Part shown: positions 1,533-5,637 of the stretch, piece after piece
How positions within the stretch are numbered: the first letter of the stretch is position 1
Layout: every line of letters begins with the position of its first letter
NCBI GenBank assembly: GCA_027023165.1
Contig: JALVWX010000113.1
Coordinates: 1-9,981 of the forward strand
From: Thermococcus sp.
GTDB taxonomy: Archaea > Methanobacteriota_B > Thermococci > Thermococcales > Thermococcaceae
Length of the DNA: 9,981 nucleotides
Reading direction: 5' to 3'
Notes under the pieces: generated by a model
Databases searched by the model: none
The model's input: only the letters and a program-made list of their open reading frames with translations
What the model was told of the DNA's origin: nothing
Position numbers and translations under genes: made by a program

Positions 1533-2292
<760 letters not shown>

Positions 2293-2408: not shown

Positions 2409-3255
2409 ATGAATGTGACACCCATGCCCGGAGTTCCCTCCTTTGAGTTCGGCATAGATTCAATAGCACTTGCATCGCTCGTGGTTCTCCTGTCGGAAAT
2501 ACTCTCGATGTTAATCAAAAGGAAGACGAAGTTTCCCTACACCCCTTCTGGTTCTCTTCGGCATCATCGTCGATCCGGTTTTGACGCTCATACTCCCAAA
2601 ACGGCGAGGATGCTCTTCTACTACGTGCGCGCATTCGGCCTCTTTCTGGTTCTCTTCGCGGTCGGCTTCAGCCTCCGGCTCGTCGTCCCGAGGAGGCATA
2701 AGCTCGTGATGGGCATCCTGGACACGCTTGGACTCCTTGGAACGGCCCTCCTAAGCGGATGGTTCTTCTCGTGGGCGTTTCACGTTCCATTCCCCGCAGG
2801 ATTCCTCTTCGGGGCCGTGGTCTCGGGCACCGATCCGGCAACCCTGATACCTCTTTTCAAGCACCACAGGGTTCCAGAGGATATAGAGACGATGATCGTG
2901 ACGAAAGCAATATTCAACGGTCCGCTGGCCATAATAGGCCTTGTCTTGAGCGACCACGGGAAGCCTTTAAAAAACCCGTCCGGAGATTGACGAAGCCGTC
3001 GGGAGGAACGTGGAGTTCAGCGACGTCCTCTCCACTTTCTCGGTGATATTCATCTTCGTCCTGCTCGGTGGATCCAAAGGGGCGGTCGCGGCCAGCATGG
3101 CCACACTGCCCGTGGTCCTCGGGAGGGTGTACAACAGCCCGGAACTCACAAACTGGAGAGAACTGATACTCAGCGCCGCCCTGATGATGGTTCTACTCTC
3201 CATGCTCCTCGAGTCCGCCTGGGTTTCCGCCCTCAGGGGCAGGCTTCTTGACTGA
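2409..3255 (+). pseudogene. decayed NhaP-type (CPA1) Na+/H+ antiporter
   Basis: Pieces of a cation/proton antiporter are readable in two frames. Frame A (from ATG 2409) encodes IALASLVVLLSEILSMLIKR and FPYTP; frame B continues with LVLFGIIVDPVLTLILP (about 2548-2598); frame A resumes at KTARMLFYYVRAFGLFLVLF and runs through SGTDPATLIPLFKHH and VTKAIFNGPLAII to a TGA at 2990; frame B from about 2977 gives PEIDEAVGRNVEFSDVLSTF, FIFVLLGG, SKGAVAASMATLP and NWRELILSAALMM to TGA 3255. Shifts lie near 2544-2547, at the A4 run 2598-2601, and near the A6 run 2969-2974. About 280 residues remain of roughly 400-440: the middle helices and a block before SKGAVA are deleted. The essential TES-x-FND motif has become TKAIFNG, removing the ion-binding Asp. 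This loss is independent of the frameshifts, so sequencing error alone cannot explain it. The last 63 bases overlap the opposing gene at 3193. Confidence 0.9.
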
Positions 3256-3663
3256 ATCCTTCTTAAAGCTGAGGTAGTAGTGTATCTTCTCAACAACCTC
3301 GGGATTCTCCTTAAAGGGTATCCCCAGCTGTTTCCTCAGCCTTTTGTTCTCAGCGAGCATTCCGGAGAGCTGTATCGCCAAGTTCTGGTTGTCCATCGCA
3401 AGGTAGTATGTCCTAAACCTCAGGGGTGACCAGTTCCCCTCGAGGCGGTAGAGCTTCCTCTCAAGCTCCTCTATTTCCATTTCAAGTGCCTCGATATCTC
3501 CTTCGGCCCCTTCAGTGTAGCCGTGGAGGAGGATTATCCTAAGAACCTCGTCTAGCCTGAACCTGTATTCCCCTGCGAGCCGCTTTGTCTCCTCAAACAT
3601 CTCGTCGGGGACGTTGAAGGTTACCCGGCTCCACCCCCTCTTGGGCCTCACGACGATCTTCAT
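3193..3663 (-). CDS. probable ribbon-helix-helix plus coiled-coil protein, 156 aa
   Basis: The fourth and last gene of the riboswitch operon; no named family is recognised. Residues 12-52 (SRVTFNVPDEMFEETKRLAG, then a second helix DEVLRIILLHGY) have the beta-strand, helix, turn, helix pattern of ribbon-helix-helix DNA-binding domains. Residues about 55-75 (IEALEMEIEELERKLYRLEG) and about 92-112 are heptad-rich and should form coiled coils. The C-terminal 25 residues are polar and Lys/Pro/Gly-rich, and their coding DNA overlaps the relic antiporter on the opposite strand. ATG 3663 shares ATGA with the stop of the preceding gene, with GGGTGAGAGG upstream, so translation is coupled. A regulator or chromatin-associated protein acting on its own operon is plausible, but the RHH reading is by eye only. 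Confidence 0.78.
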   Translation of the reverse strand: MKIVVRPKRGWSRVTFNVPDEMFEETKRLAGEYRFRLDEVLRIILLHGYTEGAEGDIEALEMEIEELERKLYRLEGNWSPLRFRTYYLAMDNQNLAIQLSGMLAENKRLRKQLGIPFKENPEVVEKIHYYLSFKKDSVKKPAPEGGNPGGLEEHGE

Positions 3664-3959
3664 TTCCTCTCACCCAGCCTCTTCGTCAGTTCCCTGTTCT
3701 CTTCCCCAAGCTTCTTCCTGAAGGCCATCAAGAATTCCTTGTCTGCAATCGCCTTTCTCTCGAACTCCATAAGCTCAAGATACTCCTTCTCCAGCTCTTT
3801 GAGCCGCTTTTCGAGCCTCTCCTTCTGTTCAAGGAGAACCCTGAGCCTAAGCTCCTTAAGCGTCCGCTCAAGCCCCTCCGGGTCCCTAAAGCGCCCCTCT
3901 ATTTCCTTCCTGTGCTTCTTGATTTCCTTGAATTCCTCGCTCTTCACCCGTATCTCCAT
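3660..3959 (-). CDS. small charged coiled-coil protein, 99 aa
   Basis: Third gene of the operon. Almost the whole product is Lys/Glu/Arg/Leu-rich with clear heptads, for example ERTLKELRLRVLLEQKERLE and KRLKELEKEYLELMEFERKA, so a long helical coiled coil is expected. It may pair with the coiled coils of the next product; both are small, charged and translationally coupled. No catalytic or metal motif is visible. I prefer ATG 3959 (MEIRVKSEEFKEI), which has GGCGGGGAT about 6 nt upstream and overlaps the previous gene by 16 bases. A GTG at 3992 would add 11 residues but lacks a good ribosome site. The function is unknown. Confidence 0.75.
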   Translation of the reverse strand: MEIRVKSEEFKEIKKHRKEIEGRFRDPEGLERTLKELRLRVLLEQKERLEKRLKELEKEYLELMEFERKAIADKEFLMAFRKKLGEENRELTKRLGERK

Positions 3960-4636
3960 GGGAATCCCCGCCTTTTCTCCTTTTTCTCCCACCCAAGCGG
4001 CGCCACAACTTCAAGCCCCTTGAGGGCTTCAACCGCCTGCGGAGGTGCTTTCAGCTCTTCTGTAGTGTGCTCCTCATCAACGCGGTAGTCAAACTTGTCA
4101 ATAAACGATTTCAGGCGTTCGTCGAGTTCCCTAAGCTTCTCCAGCTGAACCCGCTTCAGCTCCTCGGCCGCGGTGGGATTCTTCCCCTTGAGCAGGGAAT
4201 ACAGCATCTCGTAGTGTCGCTTGCAGAGCACCGAGCCGGATTTCTCGTAATCTGGGAGAAGTTCACCAATCCTGTTAGCGAATGCCTCCACCGTCGTTCT
4301 CTCCTTCTCACGGAGGAGCGAGCAGAGAAAGCACTCGCCGTTTCCGGCGGGTTCTCCTCTCTCAAGCGATGAGATGTAAATCGAGAGCATGTGTTCGTAG
4401 ATTATGGAAACGCCGAGGGGACCTAGCAGAGGCTCCGAGTACGCTTTCCTGAGGGTTCTCCACGCGTGGTATGTGCAGAGGCCGAGGCTCTCCTTGAACT
4501 TGTTCCTCACTTCAGGGTCGTTCACGTGCTCGTAGAGTATCGTGTCTATCTCGCTCTCCTCGTACTCACTCAGCAGTCTGCAAACGGGGCAGCCCTCGCC
4601 CAGGGCCTCCCTTATGTGGACGCCTATCAGGTCCAT
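3944..4636 (-). CDS. DUF6062-like protein with two CxxC...CxxH modules, 230 aa
   Basis: Second gene of the operon. The protein is built of two similar halves, each starting with a CxxC knuckle followed by a helix and ending with CxxH: Cys16-Pro-Val-Cys19 with Cys54-Thr-Tyr-His57, and Cys102-Phe-Leu-Cys105 with Cys138-Lys-Arg-His141. The spacings are 34 and 32 residues, so an internal duplication is likely and each half should bind one zinc. The pattern matches what I recall of DUF6062, a family without a known function. The C-terminal part (about 150-190) is helical and charged, followed by a basic tail KKEKRRGFPWRYG. ATG 4636 was chosen over an in-frame TTG at 4642 because the GAGGCG ribosome site, fused to the stop codon of the upstream gene, is correctly spaced only for the ATG. 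Confidence 0.85.
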   Translation of the reverse strand: MDLIGVHIREALGEGCPVCRLLSEYEESEIDTILYEHVNDPEVRNKFKESLGLCTYHAWRTLRKAYSEPLLGPLGVSIIYEHMLSIYISSLERGEPAGNGECFLCSLLREKERTTVEAFANRIGELLPDYEKSGSVLCKRHYEMLYSLLKGKNPTAAEELKRVQLEKLRELDERLKSFIDKFDYRVDEEHTTEELKAPPQAVEALKGLEVVAPLGWEKKEKRRGFPWRYG

Positions 4637-4646
4637 TGGCAACGCC

Positions 4647-5513
4647 TCAAAGGAACCTCAGCATTGAGTCAACCACCGCCAGTGCCCTGTAGGTGTTCTG
4701 GAAGTTCGAGATTCCAAGCTCCAAGCTTCTCCTGAAGCCGCCGTTGGAGTTCTGGAGCCGGCGGATGAACCAAACGTGCCTCCGCGGGCAGGAGGGAGTT
4801 TCACCCTGCAGTTCGAGGCCTCGGGTTCCGTAAAACGTCGGCTCAAGGTACGGCGGAAGGCTATATGGAACTTCAGTGAAGCCACCCCAGTCTCCGCAAA
4901 GCTCACAGTTCCTGAAGTGCACGCTCTTTGGCGGCCTGTAGCCGAGGGCGTTGAGAGCGTGGAGGGCCTGGTAGGTCATCGTTGTCGTCGGCTGTTTAAC
5001 GCCGTAGCCGTTTCCGTTTCTAAAGCGCATGACGAACCTTCTGATGGCATCTTTTTCCCCGTCAGAGAAGCGATACCCGATGGCCTTCAAGGCCTTAACG
5101 ACCCAGTAGGTCGCTTCAAGCGGTGTGGCGGTTCCGAACTCCTCACTGCCCCCCAGTCCGACGGCGAATCTGCCCTCAAGCGGGTTGTATTTGGTGAAGA
5201 CAATATCCACATGCTCCCTCGCGATATCCCTCGCTCCCAGTATGGCCAGCCCCTCAAGGGCCATGGCAATTGCGACAACGGCCGTTTGGGGCTGTATCGC
5301 CTTCGAAAGAAACTCGATGGTTTTCTCTTTCTCCGGAACCTCCAATCCAAGGAGGTTGTAGAGCTTGACCGCGTAGTAGGTGTCGTTGACGTTGGTATCG
5401 TCGAGAACGCTCACAAAACAGTAGCCGCCGTCGTCGTGGCGCCTCTTCTCAACGTAATCAAGAACCTTCCCTGTCTCAATGTACCGTCCGATTTCCTCGA
5501 GCTTCGCGCCCAT
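4647..5513 (-). CDS. alpha-alpha toroid protein with prenyltransferase/squalene-cyclase repeats, 288 aa
   Basis: First gene of the operon, directly behind the fluoride riboswitch. About five repeats of the prenyltransferase-beta/terpene-cyclase type are visible, each a glycine-rich turn then a helix: DDGGYCFVS (27-35), EGRFAVGLG (113-121), GNGYGVKQP (167-175), DWGGFTEVP (208-216) and NGGFRRSLE (257-265), with helices such as NDTYYAVKLYNLLG and EATYWVVKALKAIG. The fourth repeat resembles the Rab/Ras prenyltransferase beta segment WGGF...P, but the zinc-binding His of the canonical DPFHT block is replaced (EPTFYGTRGL). Cys203-x2-Cys206 and Cys242-x3-His246 could form a different metal site. Prenyl transfer is therefore doubtful; a small-molecule or protein-binding toroid is an alternative. 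ATG 5513 follows GGGAGG at a 7-nt spacing. Start choice is firm, function unknown. Confidence 0.85.
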   Translation of the reverse strand: MGAKLEEIGRYIETGKVLDYVEKRRHDDGGYCFVSVLDDTNVNDTYYAVKLYNLLGLEVPEKEKTIEFLSKAIQPQTAVVAIAMALEGLAILGARDIAREHVDIVFTKYNPLEGRFAVGLGGSEEFGTATPLEATYWVVKALKAIGYRFSDGEKDAIRRFVMRFRNGNGYGVKQPTTTMTYQALHALNALGYRPPKSVHFRNCELCGDWGGFTEVPYSLPPYLEPTFYGTRGLELQGETPSCPRRHVWFIRRLQNSNGGFRRSLELGISNFQNTYRALAVVDSMLRFL

Positions 5514-5547
5514 TCTACCGCCTCCCTTCTTCAGCGGAGAACAGGCG
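5514..5547 (-). promoter_or_regulatory. ribosome-site expression platform of the riboswitch
   Basis: The Shine-Dalgarno GGGAGG (5526-5521) lies 7 nt before ATG 5513. The run AGGCG (5523-5519), which overlaps it, is exactly complementary to CGCCU (5547-5543), and the UUCU/AGAA pair (5541-5538 with 5530-5527) can extend this into a nested hairpin. CGCC is also part of the 3' strand of the aptamer pseudoknot, so pairing with the ribosome site and formation of the ligand-bound fold exclude one another. This predicts translation ON with fluoride. Pairings are seen in the sequence; the mechanism is inference. Confidence 0.6.
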
Positions 5548-5600
5548 TCATCAACCCCGGAGGGCGGTTTGGCTCAAGGCCCGGCGGACGCCATCGCCAT
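5541..5600 (-). promoter_or_regulatory. fluoride (crcB-motif) riboswitch aptamer
   Basis: Reading the minus strand 5'->3', the segment has the conserved blocks of the fluoride aptamer in order: GGCGATGGCGTCCGCC (5598-5583), a linker able to form a small GGC/GCC hairpin (5581-5571), AAACCGCC (5570-5563), and GGTTGATGACGCCT (5556-5543). Stem GGCG/CGCC pairs 5598-5595 with 5586-5583. The loop bases GGCGUC (5592-5587) pair perfectly with GACGCC (5549-5544), giving the defining 6-bp pseudoknot. A short stem ACC/GGU with CC/GG and one bulged G forms around 5568-5554. It lies on the sense strand between a plausible promoter and the ribosome site of the toroid gene, as a cis-regulator should. Fluoride riboswitches normally control crcB, ClC-type exporters or antiporters, so this target is unusual. 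Confidence 0.87.
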
Positions 5601-5617
5601 TCCCCATTCCAGGGATG

Positions 5618-5637
5618 CATTAAAAATCTTTATGGTT
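5618..5637 (-). promoter_or_regulatory. probable promoter of the riboswitch operon
   Basis: On the minus strand, ACCATAAAGATTTTTAATG provides one or two TATA-like cores about 20-35 nt upstream of the first aptamer base. A start near 5605-5610 would place the whole aptamer in the leader. The exact box cannot be decided by eye; an alternative, CGATAAAAAG, lies near 5650-5641. Confidence 0.45.

What the first reader, a model, noticed from the sequence alone, without database searches (positions are those of the whole stretch)
5541..5600. Fluoride riboswitch controlling a toroid-protein operon instead of a known fluoride gene
The minus strand carries all conserved blocks of the crcB-motif (fluoride) riboswitch: GGCGATGG, a GTCCGCC arm, AAACCGCC, and TGATGACGCC, with a perfect 6-bp pseudoknot (5592-5587 with 5549-5544). 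It sits in the leader of a gene for a prenyltransferase/terpene-cyclase-repeat protein followed by DUF6062, coiled-coil and RHH-like genes. Known fluoride riboswitch targets are exporters, antiporters and fluoride-sensitive enzymes; this gene set is not among those I know. It may be a new fluoride-response system, or the switch may sense for an unexpected physiological purpose.
Basis: partly seen in the sequence, partly recalled or inferred. Interest (0 to 1): 0.88.

Follow-up and report, generated by a model that had tools for sequence, protein, structure and literature searches.

The report
Fluoride switch before an uncharacterised toroid gene
A genuine fluoride-sensing RNA sits in front of a gene for an uncharacterised ring-shaped protein in a heat-loving archaeon, the same pairing recurs across its relatives, and in most of them part of the sensor can pair with the start of that gene, which suggests how the switch works.

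Summary
Window 5607-5535 (-) is a fluoride riboswitch (RF01734, 45.4 bits, cut-off 34, E 3.6e-10) with P1, P3 and a 6-bp pseudoknot, 21 nt before the toroid start codon. The reading needs correcting. crcB, the fluoride exporter gene, lies 3.2 kb downstream on the same strand and was overlooked. T. kodakarensis work already noted, as a surprise, the switch before TK0513 rather than crcB (PMC4247193). Still, the toroid is the constant target: 88 of 90 toroid-bearing class genomes have the aptamer 12-44 nt before it, including seven where crcB lies elsewhere on the contig; none of the 82 with a crcB match has an aptamer directly before crcB. New here: in 67 of 81 unique leaders the P2 hairpin has a canonical form complementary to the toroid start codon and codons 2-5. 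Codons 2-4 are identical in 97.0% of same-residue comparisons between distant orthologues, against 37.3% from codon 7 on. I propose a translational ON switch in which the gene start invades P2. In the window itself this pairing is weakened. What the toroid protein does is unknown.

The parts
5618..5628 (-). TATA-like stretch (GATTTTTAATG) 20-30 nt before the first aptamer stem (5598); likely promoter of the riboswitch transcript
   Evidence: read from sequence; similar A/T stretches precede the aptamer in many of the leaders printed; inference, no TSS data for this organism
5535..5607 (-). fluoride riboswitch aptamer RF01734
   Evidence: cmscan 45.4 bits, E 3.6e-10, over the gathering score
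5583..5598 (-). P1 stem (5598-5595 with 5586-5583) and its loop, which carries the 5' pseudoknot strand 5592-5587
   Evidence: the four P1 pairs kept in 80 of 80 unique leaders counted (one of 81 dropped)
5544..5549 (-). 3' pseudoknot strand GACGCC, pairs with 5592-5587
   Evidence: 6 pairs kept in 80 of 80 unique leaders counted; one U-A pair is C-G in 6 and U-G in 2
5571..5582 (-). P2 hairpin insert (GGGCCTTGAGCC) between P1 and P3; in most relatives complementary to the toroid start codon region
   Evidence: in the window the pairing is weaker (-16.5 against a mean of -11.6 kcal/mol for synonymous recodings, 3.8% as good) and, with the P2 core alone, not the best site in the ORF (rank 29)
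5554..5565 (-). P3 stem (5565-5562 with 5557-5554; one pair is G-U)
   Evidence: alignment
5521..5525 (-). Shine-Dalgarno sequence GGAGG of the toroid gene
   Evidence: read from sequence
4647..5513 (-). toroid gene, 288 aa, prenyltransferase alpha-alpha toroid domain; first codons ATGGGCGCGAAGCTC are the partner of P2
   Evidence: PF00432 E 2.1e-10; 90 of 115 class genomes have a match
3944..4642 (-). DUF6062 gene
   Evidence: PF19538 E 1.1e-16; found in 56 of 90 toroid loci
3660..3992 (-). coiled-coil ORF, 110 aa
   Evidence: found in 57 of 90 toroid loci; only a sub-threshold Pfam match
3193..3663 (-). RHH-like ORF, 156 aa
   Evidence: found in 67 of 90 toroid loci; no Pfam match
2409..3255 (+). 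broken Na+/H+ antiporter gene (PF00999) between the toroid cluster and crcB
   Evidence: matches residues 35-202 and 317-455 of the intact 456-aa homologue of L103, in two frames
1921..2292 (-). crcB/Fluc fluoride exporter gene, with its own TATA-like stretch upstream (CCTTAAGTAGGG)
   Evidence: PF02537 E 5e-28; TIGR00494 above cut-off; CTTAAGTA also precedes crcB in 6 of the 16 other crcB leaders printed
1533..1916 (-). DUF190 gene next to crcB
   Evidence: PF02641 E 5.9e-39

Best explanation
This is a fluoride riboswitch that turns on translation of the toroid gene, the first gene of a fluoride-response locus of Thermococcales that usually also holds crcB and DUF190. SHOWN: the aptamer is real, and its position before the toroid is conserved across the order, including where crcB lies elsewhere. 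SHOWN by comparison: in most relatives the P2 hairpin of the aptamer is complementary to the start codon and codons 2-5 of the toroid gene, and codons 2-4 are frozen at the nucleotide level. INFERRED: without fluoride the gene start invades P2 (P2 loop as toehold) and forms a helix of about 11-14 bp that buries the AUG. Fluoride locks the pseudoknotted aptamer, P2 stays a local hairpin and the start codon is free. INFERRED: crcB in this window is made mainly from its own promoter. UNKNOWN: what the toroid protein does; my best guess is an enzyme or binder of an isoprenoid or diphosphate that helps cells stand fluoride.
For: RF01734 hit. Aptamer 12-44 nt before the toroid match in 88 of 90 toroid-bearing genomes, 86 of the 88 over the gathering score. 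In seven genomes crcB is elsewhere on the same contig (G049-G054, G064) and the aptamer stays with the toroid. No aptamer within 300 nt before crcB in any of the 82 toroid-bearing genomes with a crcB match; the only such case in the class is G042, which has no toroid match. Pseudoknot kept with changes on both sides. Codons 2-4 are the three most extreme of 163 conserved columns for codon uniformity: 97.0% identical codons against 37.3% from codon 7 on, over 1441 pairs under 68% identity. P2-start duplex -23.6 against -13.2 kcal/mol for synonymous recodings, 69 of 78 leaders in the best 5%. Start codons depart from the common form only where P2 does too (67/0/6/8, Fisher 9e-8). P2's best site in the whole ORF is the start in 65 of 78 leaders. 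No T-run between aptamer and ATG in the window, which speaks for translation. PMC8241225 (passage) cites Speed 2018 for the T. kodakarensis switch as presumably regulating translation.
Against: In the window the P2-start pairing is weak (rank 29 of ORF sites), and 12 of 81 leaders give no clear sign of it (9 with more than 5% of recodings as good, 3 without a P2); in 13 of 78 another ORF site beats the start. A plain ViennaRNA model with the pseudoknot strands blocked raised SD exposure by more than 0.1 in only 32 of 81 leaders at 37 C and lowered it in 6 (23 and 5 at 80 C), and moved the wrong way for the window (0.60 to 0.19). Pairing of P3 with the SD is not backed by covariation (634 of 2000 shuffles as good). 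The leaders are related, so counts are not independent events. PMC4247193 reports an 86-nt crcB RNA in growing T. kodakarensis cells, which could mean early termination or processing rather than translation control. Ligand binding and response were not tested here.
Confidence: 0.72

Rival explanations
1. The riboswitch is really the crcB switch: the toroid is a passenger at the head of one long operon, and fluoride acts on crcB by read-through.
For: 73 of 90 toroid-bearing genomes have crcB within 8 kb downstream on the same strand, 14 of them under 200 nt from the toroid match; PMC4247193 says co-transcription remains possible under some circumstances.
Against: In seven genomes (G049-G054, G064) crcB is elsewhere on the contig and the aptamer stays with a toroid without internal stops. 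The first codons of the toroid are frozen to match P2. In the window about 900 nt and a gene remnant on the other strand separate the RHH-like ORF from crcB. crcB has a TATA-like stretch of its own, and T. kodakarensis has a TSS between TK0513 and TK0514 (PMC4247193).
Confidence: 0.15
2. The switch works by transcription: premature termination or RNA processing after the aptamer gives the short crcB RNA, and fluoride allows read-through; the start-codon complementarity is incidental.
For: PMC4247193 saw an 86-nt crcB RNA in growing T. kodakarensis cells; predicted terminators overlap many crcB-motif RNAs (PMC2864571, passage).
Against: No T-run lies between aptamer and ATG in the window. The nucleotide-level freeze of codons 2-4 is not explained by termination before the gene.
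Confidence: 0.2
3. The codon freeze reflects another constraint (a DNA element, an RNA-protein site, or ribosome loading) and P2 only happens to match.
For: In six leaders P2 has changed while the start codons kept the common form (L001, L003, L008, L009, L010, L090); P. yayanosii (L139) lost the aptamer's 5' half yet keeps ATGGGCTCGAAGCTT.
Against: The duplex is more stable than at least 95% of synonymous recodings in 69 of 78 leaders. The start departs from the common form in 0 of the 67 leaders that keep canonical P2. Loss of P2 in L012, L013 and L137 goes with different first codons.
Confidence: 0.15

Closest known systems
Fluoride riboswitch (crcB motif, RF01734)
   Same: Same aptamer: P1, pseudoknot, P3, conserved TGATGA block; an optional hairpin between P1 and P3 is also part of the motif as I recall it
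   Different: Directly precedes a toroid-domain gene; P2 complementary to that gene's start in most relatives
T. kodakarensis riboswitch before TK0513 (PMC4247193, passages; Speed et al. 2018, not held)
   Different: In the window DUF6062, coiled-coil and RHH-like genes and a broken antiporter gene lie between toroid and crcB
Translational fluoride riboswitches of bacteria (two named in PMC13273304, passages)
   Same: Control presumed at translation
   Different: Here a coding segment would invade the aptamer's own P2
Second Thermococcus fluoride riboswitch before a hydrogenase-like operon
   Same: Same aptamer core; start region also complementary to an aptamer strand
   Different: No P2; a second GACGCC copy lies between SD and start, facing the pseudoknot strand

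Membership tests
Fluoride riboswitch RF01734 | covariance model score at or above the gathering score | tested here: met
   45.4 bits against 34, full length
Fluoride riboswitch RF01734 | pseudoknot between the P1 loop and the strand after P3 | tested here: met
   6 of 6 pairs in the window; kept in 80 of 80 unique leaders counted, with changes on both sides
Fluoride riboswitch RF01734 | location in a 5' leader | tested here: met
   aptamer ends 21 nt before the toroid ATG
Fluoride riboswitch RF01734 | binds fluoride and changes expression | not testable with these tools
   reported for a T. kodakarensis riboswitch by papers citing Speed 2018, not for this sequence
CrcB/Fluc exporter (window 1921-2292) | family HMM above cut-off | tested here: met
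   PF02537 97.9 bits, cut-off 32.9; TIGR00494 88.4 bits, cut-off 80.45
Prenyltransferase/terpene cyclase toroid superfamily | PF00432 above cut-off | tested here: met
   40.9 bits, cut-off 26.5
Class II terpene cyclase | DxDD catalytic motif (recalled) | tested here: not met
   none in the consensus of 32 orthologues, read by eye
Zinc protein prenyltransferase beta subunit | conserved Asp/Cys/His zinc ligands (recalled) | tested here: inconclusive
   C32 and H246 are invariant in 32 orthologues but no ligand triad was established; the CxxC near 203-206 is lost in many of them; no structure could be predicted

The most novel reading that the evidence does not exclude
Thermococcales use fluoride riboswitches whose expression platform is the coding sequence itself. 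In the toroid type the first codons mimic one arm of P2 and displace it, burying the start codon. In the hydrogenase type a second copy of the pseudoknot strand, between SD and start, competes for the aptamer. The toroid protein, not CrcB, is the switch's dedicated client and is a new fluoride-response protein.
Probability: 0.42. Interest if true: 0.78.

Novelty: new variant of a known kind. Interest (0 to 1): 0.6.

Why it matters
It points to an uncharacterised protein that has stayed under a fluoride switch across a whole archaeal order even where the fluoride exporter gene lies elsewhere, so it likely has a direct part in fluoride resistance. It also gives a concrete model, testable by synonymous recoding, of how riboswitches act in archaea, where few natural riboswitches have been validated by experiment (passages in PMC8241225 and PMC11549558).

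Tried and rejected
Pairing of the P3 5' strand with the Shine-Dalgarno as the OFF helix: consistent in most leaders but no covariation signal (634 of 2000 shuffles as good; 80 of 81 leaders used); kept only as a possibility. A first count had the SD register wrong in some leaders and was redone; a first script missed 9 of 90 leaders by too narrow a motif and was redone. A thermodynamic model with the pseudoknot strands blocked gave a mixed result, against the reading for the window itself. The idea that second riboswitches in Thermococcus also drive toroids: they precede a hydrogenase-like operon instead. A possible wider toroid-fluoride link rests on one case, Ca. Methanofastidiosum (G031, L164), where the toroid is the third ORF after the aptamer; too thin to use. 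A phylum-wide riboswitch search returned the same 115 genomes as the class search and added nothing. Solved relatives are only remote: squalene/hopene cyclase C-terminal domains and geranylgeranyltransferase type-2 beta, best E about 3e-4. Searches for prior report. TK0513 occurs in one held paper only. One search asked for any two of fluoride riboswitch, prenyltransferase and squalene; 386 papers held two or more and the eight listed have no occurrence of fluoride riboswitch, so it does not exclude a report. I found no report of the P2-start pairing in the passages I read, but no search was made for that pairing itself, and Speed et al. 2018 could not be read and may contain it. Papers were seen as passages or listings only, none in full.

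Full report
OBSERVATION. The covariance model for the fluoride riboswitch matches window 5607-5535 on the minus strand at 45.4 bits, against a curated cut-off of 34 and with E 3.6e-10; every other match listed in the window is below its cut-off. The aptamer ends 21 nt before the ATG of the toroid gene, with GGAGG in between.

SURROUNDINGS. On the minus strand follow toroid (PF00432), DUF6062 (PF19538), a coiled-coil ORF and an RHH-like ORF. Beyond a broken Na+/H+ antiporter gene on the plus strand come crcB (PF02537) and DUF190. In one locus per toroid genome (90 loci, some cut by contig ends), DUF6062 is found in 56, the coiled-coil ORF in 57, the RHH-like ORF in 67, all three in 50. A full-length antiporter match is found in seven relatives (L103, L106, L112, L113, L116, L119, L126); the window matches only residues 35-202 and 317-455 of the 456-aa homologue, in two frames.

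CONSERVATION. Of 115 genomes of the class, 90 have a toroid match, 92 a riboswitch match (88 over the cut-off; stricter filters were used) and 90 a crcB match. Of the 90 toroid genomes, 88 have the aptamer 12-44 nt before the toroid match (86 over the cut-off, two at 28.3 and 31.1 bits). The two without are G056, which from its contig length is P. yayanosii, with only a 3' remnant of the aptamer left and no crcB found, and G107, whose toroid is broken. In two it is on another contig (G008, and G055 with a fragment only), and in eight none was found, seven of them on short contigs of drafts. In all seven with crcB elsewhere the aptamer stays with the toroid. None of the 82 toroid-bearing genomes with a crcB match has an aptamer within 300 nt before it. 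In G049-G054 the RHH-like gene, and in three the coiled-coil gene, still follow the toroid.

LITERATURE. PMC4247193 (passages) says the T. [quoted passage not shown] Later papers (passages in PMC8241225 and PMC11549558) cite Speed et al. 2018 for an experimentally validated fluoride-responsive riboswitch; PMC8241225 names T. kodakarensis. That paper was not held. PMC11139923 (passages) lists exporters, Na+/H+ antiporters, pyrophosphatase, enolase and formate hydrogen lyase among the common riboswitch-associated genes; the passages seen name no toroid.

HOW IT MAY WORK. I took leaders from 90 loci, the window included (81 unique). P1 and pseudoknot pairs are kept in 80 of 80 (one leader, L138, dropped); at one pseudoknot pair U-A is replaced by C-G in six and by U-G in two. 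Between P1 and P3 most leaders carry a hairpin, P2, typically GGGCTTCGAGCCC, and the toroid usually begins ATGGGCTCGAAGCT, complementary to it over 11 or more bases. Codons 2, 3 and 4 are the three most extreme of 163 conserved columns for codon uniformity. In 1441 pairs of orthologues under 68% identity, codons 2-4 are identical in 97.0% of same-residue comparisons, against 37.3% from codon 7 on and 31.9% for Gly, Ser and Lys there. The P2-start duplex averages -23.6 kcal/mol against -13.2 for synonymous recodings; in 69 of 78 leaders with a P2 of useful length at most 5% of recodings do as well. The start is P2's best site in the whole ORF in 65 of 78. In the 67 leaders with canonical P2 the start is always canonical; in the 14 with changed or missing P2 it has changed in 8 (Fisher 9e-8; relatedness not corrected). 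I infer that the gene start can displace one arm of P2 and bury the AUG unless fluoride locks the aptamer.

LIMITS FOR THE WINDOW. Here P2 is GGGCCTTGAGCC and the start ATGGGCGCGAAGCTC. The duplex is -16.5 kcal/mol against -11.6 for recodings (3.8% as good), but with the P2 core alone the start ranks 29th among ORF sites. The closest of the fetched loci, L001, has the same P2 and still ranks first. The window may be losing this feature. The thermodynamic test of SD release was mixed overall and negative for the window.

SECOND TYPE. Fourteen further loci (L141-L154) and the short L055 carry a second riboswitch without P2 before a hydrogenase-like operon; Pfam was run on the ORFs of L141 only (NADHdh, Proton_antipo_M, Complex1_49kDa), and three of the loci are too short to show more than the first ORF or part of it. 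In all 15 the spacer between SD and start holds a second GACGCC copy, and codons 2-4 face the sequence just 5' of the aptamer. Synonymous recoding is a weak test there (4 to 24% of recodings as good), but L153 keeps the pairs through changes on both sides (read by eye). This hints at a shared principle.

PROTEIN. At E 1e-3 the window's toroid found 121 proteins, 120 listed; the named sources are Thermococcus, Pyrococcus, Palaeococcus or unnamed Thermococci. The family has many invariant charged residues but no DxDD motif (32 of the 120 aligned). Its function is not known.

VERDICT. Real riboswitch; reading partly right; the toroid target was already noted in one species; its order-wide constancy and the start-codon pairing are what I add.

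Noticed in passing
L141-L154, L055: Second fluoride riboswitch in 15 genomes of the class, before a hydrogenase-like operon; a second GACGCC copy sits between SD and start codon and could compete with the pseudoknot strand.
   Followed up: partly
L164 5488-2613 (-): In Ca. Methanofastidiosum a fluoride riboswitch precedes a dynamin-like GTPase, a 101-aa ORF and a distant toroid protein, with crcB and DUF190 just upstream.
   Followed up: partly
window 2409-3255 (+): Broken Na+/H+ antiporter gene, full-length in seven relatives at the same place beside crcB; antiporters are a common fluoride-riboswitch gene class (PMC11139923, passage).
   Followed up: yes
   Followed up: partly
L088 (G103), L140 (G107), L023 (G023), L089 (G096): Toroid match broken or split (G103, G107, G023) or with one in-frame stop (G096) while crcB is kept; the aptamer is lost only in G107.
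   Followed up: no
window 8517-8426 (-): Sub-threshold hammerhead ribozyme match (18.3 bits, cut-off 34, E 2.7), antisense inside a long ORF that looks like pyruvate kinase (my recall, no search run); likely chance.
   Followed up: no
L001 111-1013: CRISPR array (CRISPR-DR6 repeats) near the end of the locus of the closest fetched relative.
   Followed up: no
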